Source of the DNA: Sarcocystis neurona
Taxonomy: Eukaryota > Apicomplexa > Conoidasida > Eucoccidiorida > Sarcocystidae
NCBI GenBank assembly: GCA_000727475.1
Contig: KL647288.1
Coordinates: forward strand, 5,988,051 to 6,052,050
Direction: 5' to 3'
DNA: 64,000 nt
Below, piece after piece: positions 709-59,434 of the stretch. The notes below the pieces were generated by a model. It saw only the letters and a program-made list of their open reading frames with translations. It had not been told where the DNA came from and ran no database searches. Made by a program: the position numbers and the translations under genes. Position 1 is the stretch's first letter. Each line of letters begins with the position of its first letter.

Positions 709-2230
709 GGCATAAGTACACGTACACACACGTCCTTGTACAGCGATACCACCGGTGAATGCAATCCCGTCCTTGTGGCCGGTGGAATGTGCGTAGGCTA
801 TGTACGCTATATGTACATGTGTGTATTCACTGTCGTAGACACCACAGTTACAGACAAGGCTGTACAGCTGCGGGGACACTAGATTCAAAAGAGAGGGTAA
901 GTGGCGGCAGCCGCGTATACAAGCTGTTCTTGGAAAAGAGATAAAGGCGCTTACTCTCACATGTACGTACGTGTACGCAATGTGTACACATGAGCGTCGG
1001 CGGAGACGCACACACGCGGGTCTTTGCAACAGAGACGTGCAAGACATGTTAAATAGGAAAATCTTTTCGTCGTAACAGTCCTGCGCAATTCCTAATATGT
1101 ACAGCAATCCATACCGGTGTATATGGTTGTGTCTCTAGCATAGGCAGAGACGGACTGGTACGGACGCTCGAGGTGCCCCAAAGATGTTTACTTCGGTGAA
1201 ATAGTGACAGTGCACTAGATTGTACGGAACTGGATGGGTGGGACAGTGTGGGCGCCACTGGACACCGACACCGAGGAAAAATCACGAAAGTGTGATGTAG
1301 GCACCCCATCGTATGAATGGCAGCGAGAGAGCAGCAGCCTGCACTGTGCCGTTCTTCCGTGGAGAACAGTTCCACGTGCTGCCATTCACAGGTTAACTTG
1401 GAATCGTCATCTCCTGCGGCCTAACTATGAAATTCTCTCGAGAACTGAAGGCGTAGACACTGACGAATTCGGCTGTAGGAACGCTAAGGCCGCAGTTTGA
1501 AGTCCTGCAAGTGAACTGCAATTGTCAACATCACAAACTCAACACATCTGTGCACACCTGAATCTCAGCTTTAAATTGTACTGCAGAATTACCACCTTGC
1601 GAGCCACATCGGTTAGTGGCACGCTTTAGACCGATACCTACAAACAGGAGAACGCAGGTTGCTGTCGTTCTCAGCCCATTTCGAAAGACGAGCAACAAGG
1701 GTAAAGAACGGCCCTAAAAGATGAGGGATAGTGCACTTCACCGTGAAAGTAGCTGTGCCTCATAAAGGTCTCTTTCTAAGTAAATAGCCACAAACGGCTC
1801 TAGTGGTACAGCTGAACGCGACCCTAAAGATACTGGGCCCTCAGTTTACTTGGATTAGAGACGACGCCCTCAAGCACGTAAGCCTCGACTGGCACGCAAC
1901 CAAAAGGTCACCGTGCCCCCACCTACTGGAGACAAATCCTCTGCTCTAATCGTGCATCCCCGCTGACTTCAAAGGTTTGATTCCGGCAAGTGCTGGTGCA
2001 TCCGTGGAGTTCAGACTGCAGCTTGAGGTAACTGGCGAACGCATTATCCTTGAGAGCTATTGGGCCCTGAGGTCCTTCTCTGAACTGTAGTTTCCATTAT
2101 GTGGATTACCTTACCAGTGGTTCTTCAAACAGGAGCCAAAACTCAAGCTCAGAGAGAGTGCAGTGTACGCAGCAAGTCCTACGACAACCCACCTCACGCG
2201 CCCTTTTAACACAACAGCGCTAAGCCCCCT

Positions 2231-5200
2231 GTGATCATAAAACGAAGCGAGAGCACTTTATGGCCCCTGACTGTGTCGGTCACCCTGTCGAAGCAGGTCG
2301 ACATAAAGTCAGGATCATCACTGCCGGTGATGCGCTCTCGCTCCGTACCAGTGTGGATTCATATCACTATAGGTATGTCGTTAGGAAAACACAAATTATC
2401 AGGGCCCAGGACGTGCCCTCGGCCCTATTCTCCGTCAGTTTATATGTAGACCTGATTCCATATTTTGAAGCAGGGACCGCCGCACACGTGGCGAAAACAA
2501 ACACAGGGCTTTGTGTAGACACTGACAGATTACTGCATTCAGGCCTTTCTTACCGAATCACCAGGGTCTACACTACAACAACGAAGGATCGGTACAACCT
2601 GACAAACCTGCTTACCTTGTGTGCACATCCGGTGGAATTGCCCGCAGGTTGAGCGTCTACTTCGAGCGCAGCATCCTGCGGCAATGGAATGCATGTGGCG
2701 GCTTTAGTTCACCGCTGCATACGTGCACCTCTGCGTGCTTCCCTGAACGTTTGTAGGAAATTACTACTGTTCGAGGCAACTCTCGGCAAGACAAGCACCA
2801 GTTATGCATCCCTCCCTACTTCTGTCGAGAACCGCATGTACTGCGCGTGAGTATTGTGCTCGGTAGGAAGGATTTCTAACTTTAGTTTACACCTTAATAT
2901 CACAGAATATTACACGTAAAAGGGTACTTCTGCTTCGTGAAGTGATTACGCCTTACCCTGAAACGACGTAACTGCTGTGCTCTTGGTGGGCAAACTGCAA
3001 GAACCAGCGATACGCAGTGGAGGTGTCACGTGACAGCGCTCCCGTTTTTTCTTACTAATTCGCTGAGAGGCATCCAGTGCTCGTCCACCAGCGGATAAAT
3101 CAAGACAAATCTTTGTCGCGTCCTAGTCAGTTCTAGGGCAACTGTGCGACTTCTCTGTCGTTGAAGATGCATTATATTGGTTAAGCGGAAACTGAAGGTG
3201 TCTACGCCGTCACTTGAGGCTCAACTAGTGCCCAGTACTTCTGCGATACATCCTCAATATCAATGCTATGACAAGGCTTTTCCTTGTTCTTCCTGCGGCA
3301 CCACTCTAGTATAAGTGTCCACCGGTTCTTACACTCCAAATTCAAACATGCAACGCGTCGACAGACAAACTCACTGCCTACACCTGTACAACGTAAAAAA
3401 ACAGTGCACCTTGGCCGTCTGGAATTTCACTGGACAGATTTGTTACTTTGACTGAGTGAGTCACACTTCAAAGACTTTGAGGGCTCTGCACCTTCCGACG
3501 TGGACCCGCGCACAGCCCCAAAATAATTTTTCCCACGGTGTGCTTTTTCAGACAGGGTCGCACATACAGCAGCTTGGGCAGTCACCATCTCCTGGATGCG
3601 CATTTTCACTCGTTCAGAGGATACATTTTGTTGCATCTCACCGTAGCTCTACTTCATGCTAAATAGGTCGTCATTCGAAGGAGGGACACGCTGTTGGCCT
3701 GTCAAACTCAAGTGGCTCCCACTGACAAAACGTGGACTACATCGGCCTGCAGGCGCAGGAAAAGAAATGTATGATCTTGCCACAACTGCCGATTGACAGA
3801 GACTTTGTCAGGAGGTAGAGCGCACGTACCTTTGGACGTGAGTATAAGGGTTTATCGAAGCTAGTGTCTCAGGTGTGCTTATGCCTTAAATGGAAGGCGG
3901 TCGGCAAAGCAACTGTTGGCACGGCCCCTGCACCCCACGACTGTGTGGACCAGTCCCAAGACAATCGAAACTGTTTGTGCACTTCCACACACGAAATGCG
4001 TGTTTTTGTCCTACACGTGAGTGCACAGGAGAAGAATTGTTACATGTATAATTGTGTTTCTGCTTTACAGTGTTCAAGTGTGAAGCAAGGACCGGATTCA
4101 AGGGCGCCAGAGCGGTGCAGAACCAAGATCTCCGACCAGGAAAAGTGTCTTTTCACTATCTTTACCAGCAACCGCAACAGTGTCTCGCTTGGACTTGGGA
4201 CAGTCGCGCACGTGACTGCTATCTCCATGATTCAGACTCCGTCTGAGCTATAATAAAAAGCTTCTTGTCAAAGGAAGTGACTTCAGGACCACGGAGCTGT
4301 GCACCACCTTCAGATCGTGAGACGCATCGATGCAATCCTCGGCATCGTAAAAAGCGTCAGAGCTGGTCGTCACAGGGTATACAGTAACGTGCACGATATC
4401 TGTCAGCATTTCTCGTCTCGTGCGGGCAACCCTGCGGCGTGTCTTGAACGAGGTGTAGACTACCGTGGGTACAATGTGGCGTGCATTCAGGATGGAAAAC
4501 TCACGTCGGCATTGTCATGGCGGGATCTTTGCCGAAGACAGCAGGGCGTTATTCCTGGACGTGGGACTCCGCAAGAAATCGGTGTTGCTTGAAGAACCTC
4601 CACGCTCTCCTGGGGCGGGAGCAGAGTTCTCGGACAGCGTCTCTCGTGTCGGGACCGACGTACTGCACATCTACGCCAGCAGGTGAATGCGATGCTTTCT
4701 CGAACACAGCCCCAGCATGTTGAGATTGACAACGATACTACATGTATATCGCTACTACCCGCAGAAAGCCGAGCAACGGCAAATTCTTGCGCCCTGTGTG
4801 GGAACGTTGTGCTTGCTCCGAAGGTTGCCACGAATGGGATGTTAGCTATGAAGAGTTTAACCTTGTAAAAATGTCGATCCAGTCTGCATAAAGGATCACT
4901 GCCACGATACGTGCGCAAACACATCTGAATGCTTGTTCTGGACATACGTCTTATATGCGAAGAAATGCTATTTGAATGGTCAAGCGCTGTTGGGTTCACT
5001 TGTGGAAGGACCAGCGCGATGCCCTTCATGACCAGCTGGGCTGTACACAACCCTGTGCTCAGCCTCAACACCGCTGTGCCCCTACCAGTTTGCTCACAAT
5101 GCTCTGCAGCCTGCAAGGAAGAGAATGTGGGCTACGCCAGGCTTGACGTACAGGAGGTGGAGGCATTGGAAGTACATACTGCAAATGAGTGCCACGAATA

Positions 5201-8200
5201 ATGTGCTACGATGCATGAACACTTGTTCTGGACATGCAAACACCCATGTCTGGGGTACTCTGAAATGTTAAAGACACAGATGTGCTGACAGTCCAGTAGA
5301 AACGAGTAAGACGCTTGTACGGCTGCACGCTGGCTGGTATCATCATCGACAAGCGCAGACATGAAGTGCATCATCGCTTTGCCCGTTAGCCTTAGATTTG
5401 GCGCTTGCTGGTTGCGGTGACATTGATGTGGAGTTGTCCGATCATACGCTGGGAAGACACGAGGCTGTTCGCATGCTTAATAGCTGTCGTGGTCTGTGCC
5501 AGGCACTGCAAGACTGCTTGTACTGGATTGCCTCTGCTAAACATGTGCAGAGGCCACAATAACGCGCTACTTTAATAACGGATACGCGTACCTTTAAAAG
5601 TTGGAACTGAAAGACTATGGGAGGGATTCTGCGACGCAGAACGTGCGGGGCCGTGTACGCGGGCGCTACGCGCTCGTGCAGCTTGGCAGAAAAGACTGCG
5701 CACGCAACATTCACACAAGAATCCTTACACGGCACGGCCGTGCCTGTGCGCGCCACGCGCGACGGGAATCTGCCTCTAATATGGCTTGGAACACGTTGGA
5801 TGTGATAAAACGGAAAATGACGTGTTACGTCAATCGTTCTGTGAGGGTTCGGAGCAACGCTTCCAGTGAACCCGAAAGAAAGACGAGCTTACATATCTTT
5901 AAGTCCGCACGTGTCGCAGCGCTGAACGAATGACTGGCAAGGTGCCCACGGTGAAGTATTATGGCGTCAATCATAGGCGCAATACTAACTGAGTGCGTCA
6001 AGCAAAATTTAAGTCGATGATTTGTTCATGCGTTTGCTACAATGTGACAACGGACCGGTCAGCTTAACGGATATTGAGCAGGTTTTGGCAAGCCGTAAGA
6101 ATGAATGATACCAGTGCTCCACACATTTCCAGTGAGAAGACAATTGAGGAGGAAACCACTCTGAACTGGTGTACGACCTTCGTTCGCTGCTGGCGGTTGA
6201 AGTTTGATCATTCCTCTTGCACTGTACGGTGGAAGACGTGTCTGTATGCCCGGTGGCCAGAGTTAGATGCTGAGACACAGAGTGTTTCGGCCATCACCAA
6301 GTGCCATCCGCTTTGTCAAGAAGAAAACCTTTGCCTCAGTTGGAATCTGTTCACGTGTTTAGTGTTGTTCCTGATAAGACGGTCTATATCCTGGAGAATT
6401 ACCTGCTATGAAGTCGACTGGCATGGTTTCAGGTCTCGCTAGTTTACCGCCAGTGACACACTCCAGTTCTTCTGAGCTGAAATCTTTGTAGTCGTCTGCA
6501 TGTCTTACTGCAACAAGACGTACCCATCCTTTCCTCCATGATGGTTTAGCTGCTTGAGTACCACGTGCGAGTTCTGCCACCTTCGCACGCTGTTGTTACC
6601 CCGTCGGCGTCGAGCGCTCTGTCTGTGAATCACGCATCTTTCCTGTGGAAGGTGACAAAGCAGGTAGTTGTTCCTGTGGCGTGCGGCCTCACTCGAGAGT
6701 ACGCACATGTGTGCTGGGGCATTCCAACACGTAATTGTGATTGTAGACGTCGAGACGGAGTCTGTGGCCATCCGCAAGTCGTAGCAACGTGTGCGTTGGT
6801 AGCCTGCACCCCAAGCATTTACTCTTCTTCATTCTGCTCTACACCAACTATAAAAGGCACCATCCACGGCATGGTCGTGCCACAGTGCTGCCGCAAACTG
6901 ATGGCTGGGACGCCTACAAGTGTTTGAATACGCGTCACGAACCGGTTTGAAAGGAAGACAGATGGCATTGCCGCTGGAGAACAGGATGGCTTCAGGACTG
7001 GCGCTTTGTAATTGTGCTCCGTTGAAACCTTGAATCTGTGAACCACAGAATTTTTAAACCAGATTCTCTCCGTCACAGATATATTCGCTTGTTGTCCTTA
7101 GAGCAGCAGCCATTCCACTAGGTGTCCTTCCGCCGGTAATCTCTCGCGTAGTACGCCTTCCAGTACATTGTTTCACCTGTATTTTGTCCAGCATGAGTCC
7201 ACCTACCAGAAGCTGTCTCATCATCACAGGACCCACCACAACTCAATCCACCACAAGCCGAGTCACCAGAAAAATCGAGATGCCAGAACTCCGGCCACCG
7301 ACAGTCGAGGTGCCAAATGTCAAGTCAGCGAAAACCGCTCCGCCGGAAGACTTTCCAGCGAAACGATAGCAGTAAAACTCTTCCTGTATGACGCAGTTTG
7401 ATAAAACGTGTTCCACGAAACAGCTACTTCAGGAGATTCCATTAAATTGTAGCCTACACTGTGCCAGCAGCAAACTTAATGTAAGGGCTTCTTCTTCGCT
7501 GATAAGCACAAACAGTACTGGCTAGTGCTCGTGCTGGAATGCGGCAAACCTCTCACGCAGTTTGAACCGCATGCAGCACCGAAGTGGAGTACATTTAGCC
7601 CCCAGTCCTTGTTCTGTTCTCGGTCCTTGTCCTGAGGACCTGCCGCGGGAATTCCGGTCTACACGTCTTGGATGGCCTTCGCCCTTCACCGTTTCCCAAA
7701 GATCTGAAGTTTGCTCAAAGACATACTCATTTATCAGTCCCAGATTCCCTCCTCCAGGGGCAGGAACTTCTTGAACCGTGGAAGAAGAATCCGCTTGGAA
7801 TGCATGACAGCCCTGAAAACGCTTCCGAACTTCACACGAGTTTGACGGTGGTGATGATATCTAGGGCAAGACATCGAGGAGAGGGCTCTCATCACTACGA
7901 ATCGACAGAGCATGGGCACCGCAAGCTTTTTGAACGAAAGACAGCACCTGCAACCTGTACAGGCGAGCAACGTAAAAGGTATCCCCGAAACCTCCTGCAA
8001 CGTCAGAAACACCGAATGTGGAGTTACGCATCAGGGTACAGCGTTACTCTACAGAGAAGGCGGCACTGACATCGACGGAGCCTTTACTTTTGTAATATTT
8101 TTTAGTGCTCATCTGATCCCTATGGGCATATTTCAAGACCGACAAGATGTTGGCCACGGCGACGCGAGATCCTCGCGTCATCTTCAAATCAACATACTCA

Positions 8201-10215
8201 ATAACGCTAAGGCAGCTGGATGCCCAAAATGGACATGTGCGTAAGAGGTCCTGGAAAGAAAAGTGCCGCACGGTTGACCACGTGGAGGATTGTACGTACG
8301 AAATTAACAGTTGAAACCTCATTCTGGTCACGGAACAGGGTAAGCAGAAAGTGTTTGGTTTTGTCCTCCGCAGCGCGGCACGGACTGGGTTTACAAAAAC
8401 TACGCGGGTCCCGTATCACTTATTCACGACAAAACTGGGTTACCGCCGCGAGCCAGAGTGCGACGAACCCTTCACGGCTTCTACCGCAGACCTTGACTAC
8501 GTGAGTGAAGATGTCTCATCCCTGGCCTGTCGTGCTTCTTATACCGCGTTCTCCAGGTATTATTCGCGTGCTGGCCAGAGCGACGGTTTTTCGTATGCCA
8601 TCCGCGCTTGTCGTTCTGAGAAACAAGGGATTTCTCGAACGTGGTAAAACATGTGAAAGAAGAGGATGCTTTGCCGCTTCCCGTCCACCAAGTGCAACTT
8701 TGCAGAGGCCAGGCAGCATGCTGAGAAATTTGCGAATCAGTCATAGATAGGAGAATTCGTCGTCCTTTTTCTCTGTCCGTAGCTTCGCAAGGGCATACCA
8801 GTCAAGGAGGACGGAGAGTGCACGTTCAGTACCGATGCACAGACAGCTTCTGATAATTCCCGCGTGTGTGCGTCGCCCGCTGCGCCATGGAGAGGATATG
8901 TGTACTTTTTTGCGTCTTCCAGTTGAAAAATGAAAGACGACAGGGCAAAAAGAGAAAGGCATACCTTGAACTCACAGGGCAGCTGCTTGTAATCGTCGCA
9001 AAGACCGCAAAGCTTGATTGACTTCGAAGGGGGTCCTACAAATTAAAGGCAACAACAATTACACACTGGAAGTCCAGATGTTGGCTCTTGCCACCTCCGC
9101 AACCGAGGTCAGGGGTTTCCACAGCAACGGCGTTGTCCACGCATTCGGTCCGAAACTAGCTTTGCGCCAGCCCTAGCTAAGCTGAAAGTAAACTCCGGAC
9201 GCACTCGTTTTGTCACACAACCTGGCTCCCCCACACATCCCCTCTACGCTACGCCGACCTGCACAAGGAGTTACCGAAGGCATGCGTTGAGGAGTGAAGA
9301 AATCTGTCTGGCCATTTCCATCCCTCACGACGGCGAGCACGGTAGAAATTACGTGCTTGTGCGGAATCTCCAGCATCCAGAAGTCAGAATGAAAGAAAAT
9401 CACTGAGATGAGGGTAATAACGACGCTGTGCAGGGCAGTCGCTTACGACGTACAAGCCCCAATTCGACTCACAGTGATGTCGCCGTCGGCGCGTTTGATA
9501 ACCCTGACAACAGTACGCTCTTAGAAAATATGCCGTGCCGAATGATACGAAGCGTTGCTGTTCCAGATTCCTACTTTTAATGTCCGGAGACCGCGTCGTT
9601 GCGCTGAGGCGATCAGTTCTTTAACAGGGCGCACCTCTGTAATCTCGTGCGATGTGCGAATGGCAAAGACAATTTTCCGCGCCTTGAGTGTGCACCGACA
9701 AGACGCAGCAAATATAAAGCCGTGACCTCACACTGCGAACAAACTGGCAGGAGCCTCGGTACCCGGAGAAGAGGAGACAGAAGGTGCGTCGTAGTTGCGG
9801 CGGACCTTGTCAAGGGTGAGCACATGTGTTGTTCGGAGCCATGCTGTGTGTTTTGTTCACAGTCGGTGGAACACAGCGAGCTCGTCGGCTAGTTGAGACC
9901 GTAGTCTCCACAGACTACACAGACAATTTGAACGAGACGGGGCGAAAAGCTGGCGTTTTCGTGGAGCGGGAGGTTAAACTGCAGGAAAAGGCGATGAGAA
10001 GCGTCTTCTTGGCCACACTGCGTCCCGCTTGAAGCAAGCCGAGCAGAGCGCGAAACAGCTGCACGAAAAGTGATAAACGTTGCCGGTTTTGTATCCGGCC
10101 TGACTGTATGTGAGCGTTGCTGAGCAGCTGGGTTGAAGTGAAAGCCTTCATAAGTACAGCGCAAGCTCCAGAGGTGTCATTCTCCATCCTAGCAGCCCTT
10201 CCCGTCACAGGTAGC
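2231..10215 (+). pseudogene. Decayed full-length copy of the PAN/Apple-domain gene
   Basis: This region is collinear with the intact gene at 23538-33999 but has no continuous reading frame. Matching blocks, left copy to right copy: signal-peptide exon 2231-2300 to 23538-23611; second exon about 2625-2650 to 23889-23911; first Apple exon 3300-3560 to 24597-24870; then 3690-3960, 4072-4260, 4430-4690, 4810-5050, 5080-5210, 5440-5560, 5900-5990, 6250-6440 and 6570-6760 to successive one-domain exons between 25024 and 28248; 6870-7050 to the first domain of the large exon; 7100-7390 to its Pro-rich linker; 8222-8450 to 31470-31830; and 9930-10210 to 33320-33560. Residual motifs such as CLAWTWD and DYRGY are legible, but stops, frameshifts and lost cysteines are frequent. 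The presumed start codon is GTG, not ATG. Introns align as well as exons, which indicates DNA-level duplication and not retroposition. Confidence 0.85.
4060..4260 (+). pseudogene. Best-preserved Apple exon relic of the left copy
   Basis: Translation around 4072-4246 reads a degenerate Apple domain with FKCEARTGFKG, QQPQQCLAWTWDSRA and DCYLHDSDSV. It corresponds to intact exon 25374-25619 (SKCEKGAGFLG, QQSQKCLAWTWDNRA, ECYLHDVDDG). One alpha-2 cysteine pair has become YHYLY, so the disulfide pattern is lost even where the frame is open. Confidence 0.8.
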
Positions 10216-12284
10216 TGATGAGCAAAGCTTCACCATTTTTGGCGAACGTCCTGCGCCCTTCAACGGGGCATACCTCTTCGAATCTGTGTGGCCTTCCGAG
10301 TCTAGAAGATGAAATAGTTCACGGGACAAATTCAGGCAGACGGTTTAAAGGCATCATGTGGACCTCGACACAGTACGTGCTGCTGAGGGGCGAATTCTGC
10401 AACAACAAACGCGTCTTAATCGATACGGGCAGATGGGTTGGTGCTCCGTTCTCTAACCGTAGAGAGGACTTCAGTCGACGCCCACGTTATGCAGTCGTAG
10501 TCTTGTAAATCTGTTTCCACTGCGAAGCTCTGCCGAACCAAGTTTCTAGTGTGGAACCGGAGAAACAATTCCCCTCTTTGACATGAGAAATGCTGAATCC
10601 TTCAAATCACTCTAGCTATCGCTGTTTAAGTGGCGCTGACCCAGCTTTCCGGACGGGAGAGCAGCACTACCAACCATACCTGCATATCTATTTATTCCCC
10701 CCGCAAGAGACATACGAGACAGCAGGTGGCCTCGCAGTAACACAAGCGTAAAAGGGATTGTGCCTATCTACTCGTTCGTATCGATTGACTTCGTGTCCTG
10801 TATACGTAGCACCCCACAATTAGTTTAGTTTTCTGCATCTCGTTGTCACCTCCTGCTTAATGGCTGCTGCCGGCACTTGTTGAAGACGTAAACGTCACGA
10901 AATATCCTCCTTCGTCTATGTGCCCCTAAGCTCTTTCGTGTGAAGGCCACGCAGATGCAAATATACCTGTACACGCAATCACCTACGTAAACGTGCACGC
11001 ACAGAACGCGTGCATACGTGTACGTGTGCTTTTGTCTTTCTATGTGTACACATATTTGAGTGGATCCATAGTTCATGTATAGGACTCTACGTGTAGCCGC
11101 ATGTGCATGCATTTGGGTTTGCTCACCTTCTCAACACGTATATGCATAGACGCATACGTTTATTTGCAGGTGTTCATCGGGGACGTCCACCGTAGGCAGA
11201 AGATGCACGAATCTCCCTCTGCACGGACATGCACGGCCTCATACAGAGATATGCAGAAATGCAATACCGCTTATACGCACAGCACACGTGCACGTAAACG
11301 CACGCGTGTGACTAGTGCAGCATCGTGGGACACTGTGCACGAATAGTGCGGCCACTGCGTTCTGCTATCAACAGTCGAATAGCAGCAGCAGCAGCGGACC
11401 GCCGAAGTTTATCACCAGTAGCAGTAGCGGCTCACTTGTCATCCACGGCAGTGGCAGATACAAGAGCGGCAGCACAACAGCAACAATAGAAGCAATACTG
11501 GCAGTTTTAGCAGCCGCGGTACCAAGGTTGCTAGATACCCAGCAGCAGCACCTTCGCTGCTGTAGCGGTAAGGACCAGCAGCAGCACCAAGGCCTCAAGG
11601 CACCCTAACGGAACGACACCACGTCGCAGGAATTCCAGCAGCGATAGCAGTAGGAATGGAGACAGCAACCACAAGGACAACGGACGCCACAGAGAGCCAT
11701 TTGCCGATTGCAGTGAACCTTCTCAACAGTGAACGCCGTGCGAATTGATGAAACAGCCAAAAACATTAAACGCCTTTCATGACTAGGTCCCCAATAAAGC
11801 TTACGACGACTTTAGTGTCGTATAAGTCGCTCTCAACTTGAGGTAAACGCCAGTAGGTGCCTATGCATTTTCTTTCCTGATGTACGCTTACGGAGTTCTG
11901 AACATTATTTTTACACATCTACTTAAATGTATTACCGCCTTCTGCATAATCCTTGAACTCACGCGCATGTTATTTGGACCCCTGCGCATATACCTTATAA
12001 ACTGACTCACATCCTGCGGCCACATGTATACGGATCACGCAGCTGCATACGGGAAAATTTGTTCTTACAGTGATATATATATATATATGCACCCGACGGC
12101 ACCTATCCGACACCTCCACGCACACTTTTTACACACACAAACAACAAGATATATATGTGTACTTGTAGGTGCACACATGAATTGCAATCACATATATGTA
12201 TACATATAGGGACGCACACGTATTCACCTGTGTATACATATTTGTTTATATATGTATAAGTGCCTGATGTGGATGTGAGGAGTG
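10216..12284. other. Decayed copy of the intergenic stretch and CPSII 3' end
   Basis: No gene is readable. Positions 10860-10960 match 34980-35070, and 11110-11180 match 35210-35270 (GGGTTTGC, CACGTATGTGCA-like blocks), so the duplicated collinearity continues from the PAN pseudogene into the CPSII side. The counterpart of the last CPSII exon should lie near 10250-10700, but I could not identify it. Confidence 0.55.
11370..11660. repeat. CAG/GCA-rich low-complexity stretch
   Basis: Clustered CAG triplets (AGCAGCAGCAGCAGCGG and similar) without a long clean frame. They match the CAG-rich stretch at 35410-35790 in the other copy. In that copy the stretch is intronic to CPSII, so this is not a coding Gln tract. 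Confidence 0.75.
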
Positions 12285-12395
12285 AAACCAAGTCATATCG
12301 CCGGCGTTGATGCCTGAGGGTCAAGACAAGTAGCCACGCTAGCTGGCCATCTGTCAAAGCCCTCCAGCACTTGTTTATCAGCTCCGCTGTAGGGG
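12285..12395 (-). pseudogene. CPSII exon 19 relic
   Basis: The minus-strand reading AELINK...ALTDGQLAWLL and, after a frameshift, RRRYD corresponds to VEMVIN...[15 protein letters not shown] of intact exon 36589-36684. The plus strand keeps GTAGCCA and CGCC(G/C)GCG(T/A) blocks in the same places. Confidence 0.7.

Positions 12396-13670: not shown

Positions 13671-13697
<27 letters not shown>
13671..13697. repeat. (TA)n microsatellite
   Basis: Uninterrupted TA run of about 13 units. Further short TA runs lie at 12071-12089, 15599-15617, 19382-19395, 19456-19487 and 21165-21190. Confidence 0.9.
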
Positions 13698-13702
<5 letters not shown>

Positions 13703-14244
13703 GTAAATCTGTACGTGCATGGGAACAGACGTGCAAGTATTTTAGACTCTATTTATTTAAGTACCCCTAGGAATAAAAAGACAGCCGCAGCAAGGAGACT
13801 AATTTCATCTGTCTGATATTAGCCGGAAAAAACAACCGCCCTTCTCCACCAACCACGACAACGTAGAAGTGCGGTGCTGCAAATTTCACGTGCGCTCACC
13901 AAAGACGCCTACATACACACGTGTGTATACGCATGATGCTTTCCACTTGACTAGTGAACTCGGAACTTTCTCTTACTTGCGCATACCAGTTGGAGGCACG
14001 AAATTGGTCACTTAGGCTCGAAAAGTAGCGCCTTGTAGAAGTACTGGTCCATTAATTGCAATGTACATACGGGTACACATTGATTTGGTGGGGAGGAAAG
14101 TAGTTCTAAGGGAACTCACAACAGTATATGTGTAGGGGTGAACAGGTTTTAAGAAATTATCAGTACAGAAGATGGAGAGAGTTGTACAGAATTGTGGCAT
14201 TACGTTGCTACGGGTCCTGCGTCACTGTATATGGGAAGTCACCT

Positions 14245-37400: not shown

Positions 37401-40400
37401 TTTCACAGTCCCTCACGCGACAGGAAGCATCTCACCCGGTACATGCAAGCAGGTTCAGGTCTACATTTGGTATTCACTCCGTTCTTTTCGCAGTGCACAC
37501 AAATTTCACTCGGCGCTCTTTATGTATACAAAGGTCTACGAGCCTGTCACAGATGCATTCACCTACAGTCGCGCAGTTACCGCTCCTTCGTTCTCTCTCG
37601 TAAGTACGCATACATCTTTAAATACGCGAGTGTGTTTTCACTTCCAAAAAAACGTGTGTACACCAGTTGCGCAGGCAACCCAGTGGTCAATAATCTGTGC
37701 AGCTCAGATTTTTTCGATCGGCAGTGCGTCGATGCAGCACGCACGAAGACGACACTCTTAGAACGGCAATTTGCGTAACAGCCTGGTTACTTGTTTTCTT
37801 GTTCTCAGTCTTCCGCGTGTTCATCTTCAACACAACAAAACCTCAACTCCATTGTACGTGGACGCTTCACGAAATGTAGACGGACGTGTGATGGTATATA
37901 TACACATACACATACAGGCACACACGTATTAAGAACGTAACACTCTTTCTTCCCACCGCCAACCTTGTTCTGCGCCACACACGCCGCAACACGTAGGATC
38001 GACATATAAATCGGTACAGCCGTTTGAAAACAGATCACCCAACTATCCTGTAAGAAGCAGAACTCCGTCACCAGGTGAAGCCCTGTTTTCCTTTGAAGTT
38101 GCCTTCGTTGCATGCAGACGTCAATCTCTCCCGCGACTACGAAACAAGACGCACGTGGAAGCTCCTACGCACATGTATTTATACACGCGCGCACTTCCAT
38201 TGGTGACGAAGCTATGCACCGTCATGACGGTGTTTTCTCATCAGCTCTGTAGTCCTGATATTCAACCCTTTGACTCATGTACGTTCTGTAGAAGGCGATT
38301 ACACAAAGATATACAAGAGGGCGTTAATGCTGCGAAAAACGCGTCGTAATTCTACAAAGGTGTGCACGTCCATAAAGTTAGACCAGCTGGCACAGAAACG
38401 CAGCCCCACACACACGCTGAAATCCTGTGCGGAACGGCACGTTATCTCTGGAGGTTTCATGAATAGAAAGAGAGTACCTTCCTGAATGATTCGCAGCGCG
38501 TCCTCCTCGTCCTCCTCATTTGCTGCCGCTCCTGTCGCAGGCTCTCCCGGAAATGACGCGGCGAGGCGCTGAAGCGGCTTCCGCACCCGACGCAGTTGCG
38601 ACAGCACAGATTGGCCTTCTCTTTTCCCCTCTGTCGCTGTTTCTCCCCCGTTTGATTTGTCTTCTATCGCTTTTCCCGTTGCTACAGCAGATGCGCTGAA
38701 TTCACAACCGCGTGTCGAGTCCGACAATTTCTTCACAAGGTACGTGTGCGTGCCTGCCACCACAAGAAAATGAGAGCAAGCGCAAATATAAATACACCAG
38801 TCGTTGATCAAAGAGAAGAGACACACAACTTTCTACGAACGAACAAATTCACGCACCTACGTACGCAGATATGTGGACTTACATGTAGAACCTTGTGGAT
38901 GGACGCGTGTACCAATCAGAGATCGCATGACGCGTGCCACACCTATTATATATGTGAGGCTCTGTTTGCCCTATTCCGTCTGCACCACGTGCCCCTCGTG
39001 GCTACATTTGCGCGCAGCGTATATTCACAAACACACCAACATCCACACAGTCTGAAGTATGCAGAGAAGCGGAGAAAAATCCGGGTGCGTCAAGGGCCTC
39101 GAAATGACGGGCAGAATGAGACGCTACGCGACTCATCTTTGCACGACGCGGAACAACCAACAGATACTTGCACACACTGATACTAATCACTATGCATGTA
39201 CAGGCGTCCGCAGACATATATATATGTATATGTAAGTACAAGTGTACACGTACCCACGTGGCTGCTGATTGACTCTGGCGCAGGTGCAAGCCAATCGTAT
39301 CCCGTAGAAACAAGCAAACCCCACACGGCCACGCTGGCAGGCGTAAGTCAACACAAGTGCTCCACACGTACATACACACACACGCACACACACACAATGC
39401 CGTGTACACGTGCGGAATATCACACACACGGACAACTCTAAACATTTCCCTACCCATAGAGACACAGAAAACATGGAAGCACGTAGGTGGATACGCGCGT
39501 CCATACATACCTGTCATCTACGTACATACTCGTACACAAAGAAGGTACACACAAAAGAAGAGAGAGAGCAAGGGGAAGTGGAGAAAGACAACGCAAACTG
39601 TTCTCTCTACACGTAATGTTTTGGCACGTATTCCTGCTTCTACGTAACAAAAAGGCCCGTTCATAGGGGTAACTATGCACGCATACCTTCTGTAGCGTAA
39701 AGATTAAAACCCATGCGCAGCAGCGCCATCATCGGCCCTTCTAATTCAACTTTCGCCCACAGTGGTCCTGCAACAACACGACAGCCGATTAACACAGCAC
39801 CATCACACAACATCGATCTCATCACACATACACATACATACAGATATATATATATATATATGTGTATATAAGTATACGCATGTACGGGATGATCAGCCAT
39901 ACAACACCCACCTCAGGATACATATGTATACATACATATTCATATACACACATATGTATGCGAATATACCGAATGATCAACCACACAACATCCACCTCAG
40001 TATACACATATATATATATATACACATATACCGAATGATCAACCACACAACACTCACCAAAGTACATACATATATATGTATGTATACATTTGGAGATCAA
40101 CAGAATATTAGTGATTTAATACGCGTTCACACACCGGTGACGTACAAGAACATCTGAATGTATGTAAAAACTATCTAGGCAAGCAGGGTGAAAAAATTTC
40201 TACCGCGCCACGACTCAAAATTTTGAGGAACCTCAGCTCTGCAAGGGCAGTACATACCTGAAACCATGCAACAACGTCTTCACGCCCACACATATATATA
40301 TGTATATTTTTAGACGGACACACACAGTATACACATATACATATATATATATATATATATCTATCTGTAGGTAGACACAAGTCGATAGACTCAGCAGCGT

Positions 40401-43400
40401 CCCCGATTCAAAGAGCAGCACAAAATATACGTGTACGCACGTGTTCAACATAAACACACACAGATATTTCATACATGCGGATGGTATATAGGTATATATG
40501 TATAAAAAGCTTTATCGTTGATGAAGCGGCCGCGGACACGTTTCCGGTGCAGCAGGTCTCCGTCTGCTCCAGCAAACGCGCAGCTGATGCAGTCGACAAC
40601 AGATCGCAGAATTAACGTTGGCAACGAAACATGGAACTCTCTGTGGCGCAGCAGGTGTGCACATAAATATACCTCGCTCTCCACCGCTTCTCTCCCCCTA
40701 TTACTTCACTATTTACGTCTCTCCTCTACAGGCGTAGGTCTACGGGCTTGGAAGAAACACAGGACGCGCAGAGTCATCACGTCGTCGGACCGACGAGGAT
40801 AAAACGTTTGAATACAGGGTGAGGAGACTTTCCTTGACACCGACATTCACTTCTCTCTCCATCTGTCTCTCTGTTTCTCTACATGTATACGTATGTGAAA
40901 CTTTTACGCATGTTTGTACTGAAAATTGTCGCCACCTGGAAGGTACGTATGTTTATGCAGACAGGAGACGTGAGCACCTGTGTCTTCGACACCGCGTAAT
41001 GCATCAGGAGCCCCGTGTTGCGCACACAGGTCCGTTCTGTCTATCGTCTGCAGCCATACACAGGACTCTTTCGCATGCAATATACAGATGACGCACACGC
41101 GTATATATATAGGAGGAACTGGACAGACCCAACACATACGCAGATACAAGAGCAACCCTATTCATCACTCTACTTTTCAGGTCACGCGCAGAAAGATTTG
41201 TATGTGAGAGAACCCCGTGTCTCACCCGTGGACACCAGAATCGACCGCGTGCGCAGCGGCAGCTGATTGCCCGCAGAGACAAACGCTTTGAGAAATGCTT
41301 CGTGCTTGTTGCTCCCAAAGCAGGCCACCTGCAGGAGAAGAAGAGAAAAGAAACGCGAAAGATGAGATCCCCGCCAGAAATCGCGGCCTCGTTCGCCACG
41401 CCAACAATGTCAATATTGGAATCCAGTCCACTTCTCCGTAGCTACGAGGCAACGCGCGCACACACAACAGCGATTCCTCACAGCCCCGAGAAACAACTGC
41501 GCGCACGTACGTGCACACAATCACCTACACCTGGAAACATACAAGTCTATGTGTACACAGAAAATGTATATATATATACGTATGTATACATTTATATGTG
41601 TGTCCGTCACTATTTTATGTGTGGTGTGGCTCAACGAGGACAGCAACAGCGTCTGTCACGTCTTAAACGAAGGCACACAGAAAGCTCATTGAACCCAGAA
41701 CAGTAATAACACACGCGTCCATAGCTCGAAGCAGCTGCTGTGCGTGCGTCGGAGTCTCTCGACTGGCCGCAGCCGCACAGCAACTGCAGAAAAAGAGAGC
41801 ACCAGCGGCATCCGAGACTCGCACCGACGAAGCCCAGCAGCACGGAAACGCCACCTCCTGCATGGACCAAGCAGCACCCGCAGCAGGACCTTCAGCAGCA
41901 CCAGGTGGCAGCCGCCTCGGCAGGACAGCGTCTCAGCAGCGGCAGCGGAGCAGCAGCAACAGCAGCAACACGGATATGGCACTACCTAAGGTGTTGACAT
42001 GTGCAGCAGTTGCTAATTCGCAACACCTGACAGTCCTCTTCCTCGGATGGGCTGTGCGTGCTCGCGCACATCTGCCTCTAGCAGACACTCACGGCGGCAG
42101 TCAGGCAGCGACTGCAGATGTAGCCCCACCCTGTGACGATCGACAATGTATATCTCTCATAGGCGAGAATATATATCTATATATATAGAGAGAGATTTTG
42201 AATCGCATGCACGTGTACATGATATCGTATGAGTGCGCGTAGATATACACACATACGCACATATACATACATCCGTATATGTACACATATATATATATAT
42301 ACCACAAACGCTGGAGTACTCGTGTCTGTAATGCTGCCGTGTAGATGCGCCTTGATACACGCACATATGCACATATATACATGTATATATAGATACATGT
42401 ATATGTACATATTTTTATACCACAGATATCTGAGTACTCGTGCGTACAACGCTGCCCGCTACATACATAAACATATCCAGATATATATATATATATATAT
42501 ATATGCGCACAAATGTACACAACTATACGCCACACGAATTAAAGTACTCGTGTGTGTAATAATGCAGATTCAGGTACGCCCGGAGGTGCCTGCACGTCTA
42601 AGCACGTATATATACATCTTGCATGCATACTCGCCTTGTATAGGCACATAGCGGCGGCCAGATAGTTACGCACGTACAAATCTCTGTGCATCGCATCATA
42701 GAAAAGTGCACTTCGTATGTGGATAGCTATGTATATATTTATAGACACACACAAACTGAACTATATAAATACAGACACAGGGACGTGCGGCAAAAAGCAG
42801 CCGCCCCATATCTTCGGCAGTTCGCAGTCAACACCAGCAACAGGTCCATCGCCAGTCAACAGGAAAGAATTCACTCAAGAGAAACAGAAGTCAGGATTGC
42901 CTCACGTACACTGGAAATACACCACGTGAGTACACACATCAATACGTTAAAAGAGGCAGCAGAGCAGCAGCAGCAACGGCCGCACACATAGCTACGGAAG
43001 GAAAAAACGCAGCCAACATGTCTACGGAAGACAAAACCGTCGACGACGAGAGCAATGTGCACGCGGCTTTCCGTCTATCGCTTCCCGCCTCTGGTAGGCT
43101 GTAGACCTTTCACGAGCGCCTTCAGTCGCGGGAACTAAGACACTAAGTAGAAAATGAACACGAAGGCCACACATGACGGAGACGGAGAAGGAAGAGAAGA
43201 ACAACAAGTGAAAGCAGAGAGGAGAACAACAAAGGAGGCGCGCAGCAGAAGGAAAAAGCCGGCGCAGACAGTGGAGGAGATGCCGACAAAAAAGGCGGAA
43301 GAAGAAAACACAGAAGACGCGCCCACGACCTTTGAAGAAGACAGGGGAAAACAACACCAGCAAGAAGAAAGAAAAGCCATGCAAGACGGTGGACAAGAAC

Positions 43401-46400
43401 TGAGAGGAAAGACGGTGGACACAGAAGAAAACTGCTTCGTCGAGAGAAGACGAGAACAGGAAGAGACCCTGAAAATCCCTTCCATAAACCGCAGAAACCG
43501 TCTGTACTCCCCGGTCCGGAAGAACAGACGGAAGGCGGCAGCACAGCAAGGAAGCTACAACAGCAGCGTCAGCACCGTCGAAACGCGGCAGCACCGCACC
43601 GGGCGACGAAGAAACGCGGAGTGGAAACAGGACGCAGAAGAAAGACAAGAAACGGTGCAAGATACGCGTGGCGGTTTCTCCTCCTCGCTTACTTCTCCCG
43701 TCGAGCGCATCTCTACACCGAGGATCGGGTCGCAGCCTCGCAGGCGGACGAAGGAAAAGACGGGCACCTTGACGCACACAAAATTTAAATCGATCAAGTG
43801 CAGCGGGACCGGATATACCGGTGCCCCCGTCATAACTCTGGAAGCAAAAACAACAAAGAAAGAGCAGCAGTTGTCAAGCGAGACGTCACGCGCGTCAACC
43901 TCCTACATCCGCAGACGAGGAAAACGCGGGATTTCTTCTTCGGCGAGCGCACGGGGACACACGCAGGGTGGCGAAGGAGACGGAAGAAACAGAAAACGGC
44001 AGGCTGACGCAGGCAACGGCACGAACACAAACGGCGCGTGGCAAGTGCAGGAGACGGCATAGCACGCACTCCGTCTCCCAAACAAAAACACCGAACGAAG
44101 AGGAGACAAGTGAGCCGTCGGAGACCCTGCGGAAAAACTCAGGCACACGCGTCTGGTAAGTGCAAAAGCGAGAATTGCACGGAGACAGGAGACTGAAACG
44201 GACTTGTAACCGGCTCCACCGTGTTTTGATAAGCTTTTGTTAGAGCTGGCAACCTGACAAAGAAGATTCTGTCGGTCCGTGCCAGCACGAGCATGACGAA
44301 AAGGAGCGAAGGCGGAGACGAAAGAGATCCGGGGAAAGAAGAATAGGAAGAAGTAGCAGAGCGGAGCCATGAAGTCTCAACAAGAGACTGCAGAGTCGCA
44401 AAGCGAATCAGCTGCCGCAGATGGCACGCACACAGCTGCCTGCCGGTCTTCGCTCTTCAAGTCGCGAATACACAACATCCAGCCACACCAACGCTATGTC
44501 AAATCACTCCTCCTGATAGGACAAATCTGCTTCGCACGTGCTACTACACATACGTATATATATATACATATGAATATATCCGTATATATACATGCGTACT
44601 CATGCAGATGGAAACATATGTATACAAACACGCAGGCACACAGACATCGTGCCGACCACGAATGCCCGAACGCGTAAAGACTCTTGGCACCGAAGACGAC
44701 ATCTCCAATGTCGCACAGGTCGCACGAGATGTGCATACGTGTATATACATGTGAATAGGGAGATGCACATTCATCTACAGTCACAGGGTCTGTTGAGTAA
44801 TATCCTTACCTAGTCGAAAGATCTATTAGATCCATATTAAACGTTTTGCTTATAAACGGGAATGTGCGTGAGGCACGCAAGTTGCACTCGATCACTTTGA
44901 CGTCGTTCTGCTTGCAGATGTACTGGATATTGAACGGCCCTGTACAGAATTGATTGCACACGTTTGTATAGAAGAGAAGTGAACGCGTATCTGCACTTCT
45001 CCCCATGCAAGTCGCACATGTATACATGTATATACATTTCAATCGGTTACTTTTGACACACACGTAAAACGCACACATGCACACATGCATGCCTTCGTAT
45101 GCAGCCCATCTTCCATACAGAACCCCCCCGGGTATGCCCTCAGGCCAGTAAAAGTTGCAGACGTCACAGAGTAGAGAAGTGTATGTGCTGCAGGACAGGG
45201 GACAGTAGATGCCTCTGAAAATTGACACTCCTCCCTTCGTAAAAAAAAGACGCGGACGCAGATGCGCATGTCATCTGGGACATTCATGCAGTCGCCGGGA
45301 ATTAGACGACGGCGCGAATCTCAGCGAGATTCAAGAGCAAGCGCACTCGCGACAAGGACCCCCAACGCGATTCTTCAGCAAAAAACGACGTCTACCTGGT
45401 TACTACCACACACGTATCTCACGAGGCGGCTCTCAGAGAAGGAAAGTCTTTGACGACCGGATCCTGCGAGACGCATACAGTCGACTGTCACGAGGATCCC
45501 ACCTGAAGCTATGCCTGTTCGACCCTGCCTTTTCTCTTCACCAACGGGGCGCACGTACTGACTTGAAGAGAGGGACACGTGCAACGCGTCTTCGCCACGG
45601 AGAAGACATGTCTTTCGTCCCGCACACCAACACACACACCTACGCTAGAACGCCGCGCTTGCGCCGTCAGGTAGACATATATATATATACATATATAAAT
45701 GCAGAGACCCGTGAGTGTACACAGGTCCATTTCCTTTTTCCCAGTTTGCTAACGCAGAGGTACGAAGTGAGAATCGAAGCTCCGCAGTCAGCTTCAGATG
45801 CAGCAATCCAGATGCAGGCTTGTCGCTGTCAACTTGACTTTCTACACGCTTCACCCGGAGAGACGGAAAGAAGTTTAGACGAGAAGTGACATACCGGAAA
45901 CTTGTAACGCCCTCGCAAGTTTCTGCGAGATCTTCTTCACACGCCTGTGAGCAACAGCGTACAAAAACGTTTCAACAACCAAGTACAAGACGGGCGTACG
46001 TCTGTCTATCTGTTTATCTGTCTATCTACTTATATATATATATATATACACGTACATGTTGTGATGTACGCAAGTGGAGTGTGATAGGCAGAAAGAACAC
46101 TTGCGTACCCGCGTGGCACTATGCATGCACAGCCTTGGGCGCACTGAGGTGCAGACGCAGAACTTTATATTGTCCTGCAGGAGTTTACGGAAACAAGAAG
46201 GGAAGATGAAGCGACAGAAAATTCGAGCCGTGTCGACGGAAGGAAAAAGCGGCAGGAAACAGCGCCGTCACAGAGCGTGCAGAGACGACGACCTCCCCAC
46301 CTTCCCAAATATACACGCACACATACACAGACACATATATACACAAACGCGCCCGCCTACGTGTAGGGAAGTGTTGCCTGTGAATGCGTAGTTGCCGCCG

Positions 46401-46686
46401 TAGTTTACCAAAAATTTAGAAAACACGTCCGTCTATGTACGTGTCTACCTATTCATATCTATACACATATACGTATGTGTATCAGCGCGCGCGTGCGGAA
46501 AATCCCTCGTGTTCGAGTCGAGTTTCGAGCGGCATGCATCTACAAACCAAAGGAGAGAAAAGCAGGCGTTCAAACGCGTGCGTCTGCGACGACGGTGGGG
46601 ACCACAGACACGCACACCTATGGCGGCCGCGATGAGCCGTTTTTGCATGTAAGCTGGTATGACCAGGCAGCGGTCGCACACACGTG

Positions 46687-46717
<31 letters not shown>

Positions 46718-49700
46718 TGTGTTCGACTTTTGTGAACGTGTGTATATTCATTCATATAGAAGCGCGCAGGTAGTCGCATCATGCGCACACACGCCAATAT
46801 TGACAACGATCCACACGCATATAAGGACAGACTCTCACCCGCGCGTAACAGCAGGCGACGATGCTAGCGATCCACACACATTCATGGAAAAGAACGGCCC
46901 GTTACCTGATCGTTTCCACGTAGAGCTTCTGCCCGGGCAGAATCAGCGTTGCGTCTCCCGAGTGCGTCCCTGCGTTCTCTACGTGCTCGCTTATCGCAAA
47001 ATTGATAATCGATCCGCGGTGTGCAACGCTGTCGAATTCCACCTGCGCAGCAGAAACGTAAACATATATCGTCTCTCGGCTTGGAAGTGGACGTAGCAGC
47101 ACGCGCCTTTAATTCTTACCCAGAAACGCAGGCGCAAACGTGTACACACACACACACACACGCACACACACACAGATACGTATCTGCGTCTAGCAGGTGG
47201 GCGAGCGCCCCACGTCGACGATCCGCTCCAGCCTCTCGAGTGAGCTGCATGCGAACACATACATACATACATACACATCCTTGTAGGGAACGACGCGCAC
47301 CTCGCTGTTTACTTATGTACTGACACAACGACAGGCCTGGGATTCTCTCTGGTCCGTCTGACTTTCTTCACAAATTGAAACAACAACGAATTCGAACTGG
47401 ACAGAGAAACAGATGCGCACCTTTGAAATGCACCGCGCGTGTAACAACACGCATATGCAGACGCATGCGTACACGGTCACGCATGCATGCACACGTGAAG
47501 ACGTAGGCAGCACAGGCGCACTGCGGGAAGAAAGGTACCGGAATCCTTGAACTGACAGCTCGTCAGACACCTCTCTCTACCGTGTGGATACACAGTGGTG
47601 GACGTGGTTCCATATGTGTGCACACATGCAAAATTTTGCCTCCACACAACCACGCGTCTCCAAACACACCAACAGACACGTACACAACTACACGCGGCGT
47701 ATACTCAAGAATAACCGAACAAAGAGCGAGTGCTTCGACGTGTGGTATCACTCCTCCACCTGTGGAGAGTCTCTTGTATAGACACGCACAGTTCAACGGG
47801 GCACACCGAAACGCAGCTGTGAAGGAGCGTGCGTGGTGTATGCATGCGTAGTCAAATACGCATTAAAACCCGTTCATGCCGCGTCGCTCGCTTTTCCTTC
47901 AGGTCCACGGTGTGCAAGGTATAAGGTGAAAGGGCAGTTCAGCCGCATATTTGCACAGGTGCAAACACGCATCCACGGAACTTCACAAAAACGTTCGTGC
48001 GCGGCCTGCCGGTTTGGCCGGCATTAAGGTGTCCCTCGGGTGCGCCTCAGACTCGAAAAGCGTTTTCCCCCAGGCACACGCGCGCTTGCAAGTATCAGAG
48101 AGGACTGCTCCGCACAGGCAAACCTTTATCCGGCACAGCGCGTGCGTTTTGCTAGAGCGGCCGCAGCTGCAACACGAGTGTGTGCTCGGTGGGTGCGACC
48201 CAGCACGTGGATCCATAGGACTGACGCGCCGCTGCTGCGCACGCGCGCAGATGCAAAGTCCTCCCGACCCCCCCCCAACCCTGCCGGTGTGGGTACACGC
48301 AAATACGGTGTCCGCTGAATTTGCACGCTTGTTCTTCGTGCCCTGACCGAAGCGCGCGCGTCCCCAAAACTAAACTACACTCGCCCTGGGGGCGTTTGCG
48401 TCCTACCGAAAAGCGCGCAGGGGACACGCGCGCATGCGTTTGTCAAGCCGCTATACAGAGACGTGCGCGCATGGTCGCGGGGACGTTTCCACTTCCCCGC
48501 TGCGCATCAAGGATCCACACCGTTGGAACCGCTGCTGCCGCGCATCTGGACGCACTGCGTGGGGACACCGAACCGCCTGTGGCCGCAGCAGCCGTGCACG
48601 CTGCAAAAGAAGAAAAGAAATTCTTACCTCTTTGGCGCCCTCCACAAACTTGGAAATGACGACGGGAGAATCCCCGCTCACAGTCGTCGCAATTTTTAGA
48701 AACGCGTCGAGCTGGTCGTCGTCGGTTACCACCCGCATCGCAGCGCCGCTCAGGACATACGACGGACGCACCAGGACCGGATATCCAACCTGCACCCAAC
48801 ACACACGTACGATCTAATATGCACATACACATATAGACATATATAGACAGAGAGTGAGAAGGGAATTCGAAACTCGCAGCCACATTTATACACACACATA
48901 CGTGTAATACAAACATACGTCGACGACCGGTTTCAGCTATTTTCCGCGTTCGCAGTCCCCTACCATGTCCCGTATCTTCCACGAACCTAAAAATTATGTC
49001 TTTACACAGGCGCACAACCACAGCCGCACGAATGCCCCGTCGCAGCTTTGAGTGGTGGAATGCCGACTTGCAGCTTTGTGTGCCGCACGTTTTGCAGTGT
49101 TGCAGTCCCTACGCGTTCGCAGTCGGTCGTGCAGACGCGTCGTCACAGAGTCCACGGGCATCTTAAAATGGTTGACACGCATTTGTAATATTTGAATCCA
49201 ACACGTCCAGAGCTTGAGAAAAAACGTCTGCTGCAATGCGCAAGTCACTTTCTAACGCAAGTGTCTTTCCACGTTTACAGTGCTCGTGTGCAGGAAAAAA
49301 GTAGCCGCACATACACAGACACAGGCGCAGCAGCAGCCGACGTCTCTGCATCCCTATGCAGCTCACAAAACTAGGCGAGACACATACACACACACACACC
49401 CACGCACACACACATATTCAGGCACGTGCGTGGAGAAAACCGTCTCTCTTTCGTGCACGGGTGTTGAGAGACCTTTCTCTCTCTCATGTCTCCGAGACAC
49501 AGCCACGCAGGCGTTTCTTGACAGTATCTCACGACAGCCGCGCCGTCTTCTTCGTGTTGTTTTTTGCTTCCCCCCTGGCCATTTCTTCACGGTCCCCAGC
49601 ATGCACTCGTTCCTCATGGAGATACAGCCCCGCCAGTTTCCGTCCCCCGCAGTCGACAGAGACTCAGAAGAGAAGTGGACGACACGAATCCGACAACGTC

Positions 49701-59394: not shown

Positions 59395-59434
<40 letters not shown>

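What the first reader, a model, noticed from the sequence alone, without database searches (positions are those of the whole stretch)
1850..47050. Ancient head-to-tail duplication of about 21-25 kb carrying the PAN gene and the 3' half of CPSII
Directly seen: the order of recognisable blocks in 1850-22320 matches 23150-47050 over at least 20 anchors, including introns and the CAG-rich spacer. The offset rises smoothly from about 21.3 kb to about 25 kb. Inference: one tandem duplication placed its right breakpoint inside CPSII. That predicts what is seen: the left copy has PAN plus CPSII exons 12 to 20 only, and the right copy has PAN plus the continuous CPSII gene. A duplication this old, still collinear and not erased, is unusual in a compact protist genome.
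Basis: partly seen in the sequence, partly recalled or inferred. Interest (0 to 1): 0.85.

Follow-up and report, generated by a model that had tools for sequence, protein, structure and literature searches.

The report
Decayed tandem copy beside working genes
A parasite related to Toxoplasma carries an old, decayed copy of a stretch of about 20 kilobases right next to the still intact original; it is a good example of a familiar kind of event.

Summary
The collinear duplication is real. Left 1632-19829 matches right 22951-45088 in the same order, with the offset rising from 21.3 to 25.3 kb. The claimed end at 22320/47050 is not supported: I found nothing above background beyond right 45.1 kb.

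The two copies are not two working loci. The right copy holds an apparently intact multi-PAN-domain gene (+) and the 3' end of CPSII (-), whose matches all lie at this one place and run on past the window. The left copy is a relic: 28 in-frame stops and 31 frame-shifting indels in 14 PAN exon cores, and faint traces of a few CPSII 3' exons.

New beyond the finding: a third, partial copy of the PAN 5' end starts 12.6 kb upstream of the window and runs into an 11-kb assembly gap. A tract of about 570 bp at 84% identity, intron included, points to later gene conversion. Amino-acid sharing suggests that the duplication followed the split from Toxoplasma and its kin.

This is an ordinary kind of event: tandem segmental duplication, then pseudogenisation.

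The parts
1632..19829 (+). Left copy (unit 1): decayed tandem copy of the right unit
   Evidence: Collinear blastn chain; tile test
22951..45088 (+). Right copy (unit 2): apparently intact PAN gene plus the 3' end of CPSII
3336..10246 (+). PAN-gene relic (pseudogene) in the left copy: exons and introns still alignable. Further 5', where the two other copies have an ATG and a GT donor, this copy reads GCT and GC
   Evidence: 28 in-frame stops, 31 frame-shifting indels in 14 of 15 exon cores; alignment
23538..33582 (+). Right PAN-domain gene: probable signal-peptide exon at 23538 (inferred), PAN exons 24.6-33.6 kb, long repeat-bearing exon from 28383 interrupted by an N gap (30503-31073)
   Evidence: PAN matches in 10 of 10 chosen ORFs at E<=1e-3, 8 of 10 over a Pfam cut-off; 8 relatives, in Besnoitia, Toxoplasma, Neospora; exon 1
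34366..64000 (-). CPSII (glutamine-dependent carbamoyl-phosphate synthetase), 3' and middle part; continues beyond the window to about 88115
   Evidence: tblastn with T. gondii CPSII P0003, matches between aa 31 and 1699; all 29 listed genome-wide matches lie here
12300..19666 (-). CPSII 3'-exon relics in the left copy: 12300-12390, about 14237-14450 (probable), 15379-15462, 16626-16699, 19550-19666
   Evidence: Exon-by-exon alignment, 4 of 12 exons at the expected offset, scores 107, 166, 118 and 173 against 85, 98, 94 and 109 for the next independent place; the fifth from the blastn chain only
4447..5015 (+). Gene-conversion tract, left side (approximate ends)
   Evidence: 78-90% identity per 100 bp against about 58% around
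25750..26320 (+). Gene-conversion tract, right side; includes an intron
   Evidence: 464/551 identical; intron 120/149; rest of right 22951-28239 2578/4481
19830..22950 (.). Zone between the copies without detectable homology to the right copy's continuation
22890..23013 (+). 62-bp direct repeat, 49/62 identical, at the start of the right unit
29055..30047 (+). 87/174-bp coding tandem repeats in the right PAN gene; the left copy has 450 bp (7386-7836) where the right has 2225 bp (28962-31187)

Best explanation
A stretch of at least 18-22 kb holding a PAN-domain gene and the last fifth of the CPSII gene was duplicated head to tail, by unequal exchange or replication-linked repair (mechanism inferred). 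The right breakpoint fell inside a CPSII intron, so the left copy of CPSII had no 5' end and was dead at birth (inferred), while the original stayed whole. The left PAN copy also lost function, and the left unit decayed. A later gene conversion overwrote about 570 bp of the dead copy, most likely from the live PAN gene. A third, upstream copy of the PAN 5' end shows that the locus is an array with at least three PAN 5' ends. Shown: collinearity, orientation, decay, the raised-identity tract, the third copy. Inferred: the duplication mechanism, that the tract is a conversion and its direction, and that the fading of homology marks the original breakpoint.
For: Collinear chain and tile test. Stops and frameshifts in the left PAN copy; codon-position identities 0.636/0.644/0.584, and 0.550 outside the cores. 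CPSII stop-free in the exon matches and found at one place only (4 of its 29 matches run into one stop each, all four just outside the exon matches). Relic exons at the expected offset. Sharp 84% tract including an intron. Upstream copy z=49 to the right copy and z=12 to the left, 200 shuffles each. Where right PAN and T. gondii P0124 differ, the left copy agrees with the right at 158 sites, with P0124 at 41, with neither at 334.
Against: The junction is not readable: about 3.1 kb before the right unit match nothing convincingly. Two of the six tested CPSII exons inside the span (the last one, and aa 1432-1484) were not found at the expected place. Reversed tiles fall on the diagonal more often than uniform chance (12 of 71 against 4.9). 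The left copy's agreement with the right is inflated because its alignment was made to the right copy.
Confidence: 0.88

Rival explanations
1. Assembly artefact: two haplotypes, or the same locus from two species, joined end to end in one scaffold.
For: The scaffold has gaps: 571 N inside the right copy and 11,073 N just before the window.
Against: Identity is 54-64% in the chain pieces, far too low for haplotypes; a second species' locus should have working genes, but the left is broken throughout. The window has no N run between the two copies.
Confidence: 0.03
2. The left copy is a second working PAN gene with a shifted exon structure, plus an antisense or regulatory CPSII fragment.
For: Exons and introns are still alignable; one stretch is 84% identical.
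Against: Each of the 14 cores examined has a stop or a frame-shifting indel; the ATG and first donor of the other copies are absent; the 84% stretch includes an intron.
Confidence: 0.04
3. Several separate events: a PAN tandem array arose first, and the CPSII 3' fragment was carried in with one later duplication, or was trimmed by deletions.
For: A third PAN 5' copy lies upstream; no CPSII sequence is seen with it, but an 11-kb gap hides most of it. Neospora has PAN relatives with nearby locus tags, NCLIV_049770, 049780 and 049840.
Against: Left and right run collinear from PAN into CPSII, which fits one event for this pair.
Confidence: 0.3
4. Chance or microsatellite matches.
For: Simple repeats do create off-diagonal hits; reversed tiles exceed uniform chance.
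Against: The signal persists after masking; the reversed-sequence control has no hit better than E=2e-6, the real one reaches E=0.
Confidence: 0.01

Closest known systems
Tandem segmental duplication with an unprocessed (duplicated) pseudogene
   Same: Adjacent, direct, collinear, introns kept, one copy decayed
   Different: Very old (54-64% identity in the chain pieces) yet still collinear over 18-22 kb; one boundary cuts a metabolic gene
   Same: Same domain family; several genes apparently near one another
   Different: Here the middle copy is dead and shares its unit with the CPSII 3' end; in Neospora the CPSII tag NCLIV_052220 is far in number from the PAN tags (distance inferred from tag numbers)
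Interlocus gene conversion between gene and pseudogene
   Same: Short tract of raised identity with sharp edges, intron included
   Different: One tract in an otherwise strongly diverged background
Apicomplexan segmental duplications surveyed by DeBarry and Kissinger 2014 (PMC4053351)
   Same: Paralogous synteny within one apicomplexan genome
   Different: Theirs were gene-based, nearly all at chromosome ends, in 5 of 12 species, none coccidian; this one lies about 6 Mb into an 11.4-Mb contig and one copy is pseudogenic

Membership tests
Tandem (head-to-tail) segmental duplication | Two adjacent, same-orientation, collinear copies longer than 1 kb | tested here: met
Tandem (head-to-tail) segmental duplication | At least 90% identity (the usual cut-off for recent segmental duplications; recalled) | tested here: not met
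   54-64% in the chain pieces, 84% in one tract; so it is an ancient duplication, not a segmental duplication in the recent sense
Tandem (head-to-tail) segmental duplication | Readable junction between the copies | tested here: inconclusive
   19900-22950 scores at background against the right copy's continuation; a 62-bp direct repeat at 22890-23013
Unprocessed pseudogene | Disabled reading frame | tested here: met
   28 stops, 31 frame-shifting indels in 14 cores; one further core of 15 not aligned
Unprocessed pseudogene | Introns retained (not a retrocopy) | tested here: met
   Alignment runs through introns and intergenic DNA
Unprocessed pseudogene | No transcription or protein | not testable with these tools
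   No RNA data here
Interlocus gene conversion | Sharp-edged tract of raised identity across coding and non-coding DNA | tested here: met
   (binomial tail 2.5e-41 for the tract, 2.4e-9 for the intron; bases treated as independent, and the tract was chosen after looking)
Interlocus gene conversion | Direction of transfer | tested here: inconclusive
   The two right exons in the tract are 56-58% identical to P0124; the four cores around them (25017, 25373, 26455, 26809) range from 39% to 72%, so a transfer into the live gene is not indicated
Multi-PAN-domain gene | Repeated PAN/apple domains | tested here: met
   Right copy: 10 of 10 chosen ORFs at E<=1e-3, 8 of 10 over a Pfam cut-off
CPSII | Fused glutaminase and synthetase parts, in one place | tested here: met
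   E. coli CarA and CarB match in order; P0003 matches between aa 31 and 1699, not every stretch covered, e.g. aa 1545-1623; all 29 listed matches at one place, 28 of 38 first-look candidates scored

The most novel reading that the evidence does not exclude
The locus is a still-exchanging PAN array: a third, living PAN gene lies in the 11-kb assembly gap (its first exon seems to keep a start codon, a hydrophobic stretch and a splice donor), and the dead middle copy persists as a partner for gene conversion among the live copies.
Probability: 0.15. Interest if true: 0.5.

Novelty: new member of a known kind. Interest (0 to 1): 0.36.

Why it matters
The one survey of duplication in Apicomplexa that I read in part (PMC4053351) compares annotated genes and so would miss relics like this one (inference). 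The locus shows that tandem duplications of about 20 kb occur away from the ends of long contigs in a coccidian, and leave traces that can still be aligned; loss and decay, rather than absence, may explain part of the reported rarity. It also gives a pair (a conserved gene and its dead twin) for measuring neutral decay in this lineage.

Tried and rejected
Rejected: chance and microsatellites (masked tile test); haplotype or two-species chimera; a working second PAN gene; extension of homology to 22320/47050. A weak on-trend alignment 21551-22744/47246-48374 had z=5.4, but at least one of 200 shuffles exceeded it, and against real genome windows it is ordinary (197; mean 184.6, sd 33.4). A weak match of 21398-22059 to 772-1409 (score 291, best of 284 strand-windows for that query, 381/712 identical) was looked at and not interpreted. 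A weak leftward extension of the upstream/left similarity (1000-1631 against -13200 to -12587) had z=3.0 and was not used.

Led nowhere: ARAGORN and Rfam (0 hits). Paper searches: none of the 20, 12, 12, 9 and 12 rows listed (of 12,756, 33,898, 59, 9 and 171 papers) describes this locus by title or abstract start; I read passages of two papers and one section of one of them. The S. neurona genome paper, tried by a recalled DOI, is not held. No collection here is described as holding DNA of Toxoplasma, Neospora or another Sarcocystis, and I did not search for it, so synteny in relatives rests on locus tags and contig lengths. No tool names the species: Sarcocystis is my inference from genome size (123 Mb; 113.9 and 127 Mb quoted in PMC12132954, passages) and from CPSII relatives.

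Dropped rows: 1 of 15 PAN exon cores (31156-31791) was not counted because it starts outside the aligned block; the 2 cores in the tract were left out too, leaving 12, and 4 of the 8 PAN relatives were used. In one search, 24 of 31 rows in repeat-dense stretches were not printed.
Full report
WHERE IT IS. The window is G000:C1:5988051-6052050 of a 122,989,501-base, 74-contig genome; contig C1 has 11,360,811 bases. No tool names the organism. The closest CPSII relatives listed are Besnoitia, Cystoisospora, Toxoplasma and Neospora, so it is a sarcocystid; from its size I infer Sarcocystis (113.9 Mb for S. calchasi and 127 Mb for S. neurona, passages of PMC12132954). Coordinates below are window coordinates; negative ones lie upstream of the window in the same contig.

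THE OBSERVATION. Standard blastn shows one strong block, 3366-5205 versus 24665-26551 (70% identity), and fragments. Scoring suited to old DNA shows a chain of direct matches from 1632/22951 to 19829/45088, with the offset climbing from 21,319 to 25,263. The reversed-sequence control gave no hit better than E=2e-6; three links of the chain (12189, 14237, 14850) are only about six- to eightfold better than that and count mainly because they lie in line. With simple repeats masked, 52 of 71 right tiles choose the left window on this diagonal (4.9 by uniform chance; reversed tiles 12 of 71). The diagonal was drawn from the same data, and the reversed tiles show that composition contributes; the blastn chain is the stronger evidence.

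THE ENDS. At the left edge, homology between the two copies starts at 1632/22951. At the right edge it fades at 19829/45088. Beyond right 45.1 kb 1 of 17 tiles is on the diagonal (0.6 expected), 0 of 6 CPSII exons are found, and left 19900-22950 scores at background. Either the breakpoint lies near 45.1 kb or the end of the left copy has been lost or replaced; these cannot be told apart here.

RIGHT COPY. Plus strand: a gene of repeated PAN domains, 10 of 10 chosen ORFs matching PAN families at E<=1e-3, 8 of 10 over a Pfam cut-off. Eight relatives were found, in Besnoitia, Toxoplasma and Neospora. A run of 571 N (30503-31073) interrupts its longest exon, so its intactness there is not shown. 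Minus strand, tail to tail with it: CPSII, whose last exon is 34494-34366 and whose first match is at 88115, beyond the window; matches lie between aa 31 and 1699 of T. gondii CPSII, with some stretches such as aa 1545-1623 unmatched. All 29 listed genome-wide matches lie in this one place (28 of 38 first-look candidates were scored). Four of the 29 run into one stop each; in all four the stop lies just outside the stop-free exon match.

LEFT COPY. In 14 of 15 PAN exon cores that could be aligned there are 28 in-frame stops and 31 frame-shifting indels, and each core has at least one of them; identity at codon positions 1, 2 and 3 is 0.636, 0.644 and 0.584, and 0.550 outside the cores. Counts in the weakly aligned last cores depend on the alignment; in the first seven cores alone there are 11 stops and 9 frame-shifting indels. 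Where the two other copies have an ATG and a GT donor in the probable first exon, the left copy reads GCT and GC (alignment). Of 12 CPSII exons tested, 4 have a relic at the expected offset: aa 1624-1656, 1514-1544, 1482-1517 and 1390-1434 (scores 107, 166, 118 and 173 against 85, 98, 94 and 109 for the next independent place, so two of the four are modest). A fifth place, 14237-14450/38473-38684, is supported by the chain only. Two tested exons inside the span were not found in place. At protein level the left copy gives only matches with E near 1 or worse and no listed match in the genome search.

THIRD COPY. The sequence from -12586 to about -11291 matches right 22967-24357 (blastn E=1.3e-38 for the best piece; z=49 to the right copy and z=12 to the left copy). 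Three-way identities are 0.553 upstream-right, 0.484 upstream-left and 0.553 left-right; single differences fall on the upstream copy at 234 columns, on the left at 229 and on the right at 148. The right copy has changed least, as expected if it alone, or it most, stayed under constraint over this stretch. That the upstream copy has changed as much as the dead left one speaks against its being a living gene; its first exon speaks for it: an ATG at -12000, a hydrophobic stretch and a GT donor. It then runs into 11,073 N that end just before window base 1. The right gene from its probable first exon to its last PAN core is about 10 kb, so a whole gene could fit; that is inference.

CONVERSION TRACT. 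Right 25750-26320 versus left about 4447-5015 is identical at 464 of 551 positions, its intron at 120 of 149, against 2578 of 4481 in the rest of right 22951-28239; the edges are sharp. Constraint does not readily explain a raised intron in a dead gene; a later conversion does. The right exons in the tract are 56-58% identical to Toxoplasma P0124, within the range of their neighbours (39-72% for the four cores 25017, 25373, 26455 and 26809), so transfer from live to dead is the likelier direction (inference).

DATE. At PAN sites where the right copy differs from Toxoplasma P0124, the left copy agrees with the right at 158, with P0124 at 41, with neither at 334; for Besnoitia P0121 163, 38 and 286; for Neospora P0126 163, 35 and 331; for Neospora P0127 164, 38 and 303 (12 cores, 4 of 8 relatives). 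If the duplication were older than the split, the first two numbers should be similar. Caveats: the left copy was aligned to the right, which favours the right; for some exons the best-matching domain in the relative is out of order and may be a paralogous domain; unequal rates could skew the ratio. No simulation of these biases was run. I read this as moderate evidence that the duplication is younger than the split from the Toxoplasma group.

HOW UNUSUAL. In 214 kb around the locus, 31 block pairs reach E<=1e-25: 4 belong to this array, 6 to the repeats inside the right PAN exon, 19 lie in the repeat-rich stretch between -60 and -20 kb, and 2 are inverted pairs downstream. Direct pairs of at least 700 aligned bases and at least 5 kb apart number 7: the 4 of the array and 3 within that repeat-rich stretch. 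An earlier count said '5 of 7 low-copy blocks' and 'the only direct multi-kb one'; the first is a miscount (4 of 7), and the second holds only once the repeat-rich stretch is set aside. A gene-based survey of 12 apicomplexan genomes calls segmental duplications rare, finds them in five species, none coccidian, nearly all at chromosome ends (PMC4053351, passages and the section 'Segmental Duplications Appear Rare'). From the passages I saw, its coccidians are T. gondii and N. caninum; I saw no Sarcocystis among them. No row listed in the paper searches describes this locus.

VERDICT. A real, old, tandem duplication with one dead copy: a member of a known kind.

Noticed in passing
Upstream of the window: G000:C1:5975464-5976977 (window -12586 to -11073), locus L009: Third partial copy of the PAN 5' end with an apparently intact first exon, running into an 11,073-N gap that ends just before window base 1.
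   Followed up: partly
25750-26320 and about 4447-5015: Tract of 84% identity including an intron between live and dead PAN copies: likely gene conversion.
   Followed up: yes
29055-30047: 87/174-bp coding tandem repeats in the right PAN gene; the left copy is about 1.8 kb shorter in this interval.
   Followed up: partly
22890-23013: 62-bp direct repeat, 49/62 identical, at the start of the right unit; could be a trace of the junction.
   Followed up: partly
G000:C1:6646632-6652975 (+) and 7165913-7173466 (-): Two further clusters of PAN_4 matches, many in short open frames like the exons of the gene studied here.
   Followed up: no
Window coordinates 106795-108052 and 115364-116594 (downstream of the window, loci L018 and L019): Inverted pair of about 1.25 kb at 87% identity, possibly a mobile element.
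   Followed up: no
Window coordinates about -44000 to -22000 (upstream, loci L010-L012): Dense field of direct and inverted matches among themselves at low identity: a repeat-rich or low-complexity block.
   Followed up: no
34366 to 88115 (minus): CPSII is spread over about 54 kb in many small exons (29 matches listed; span).
   Followed up: no
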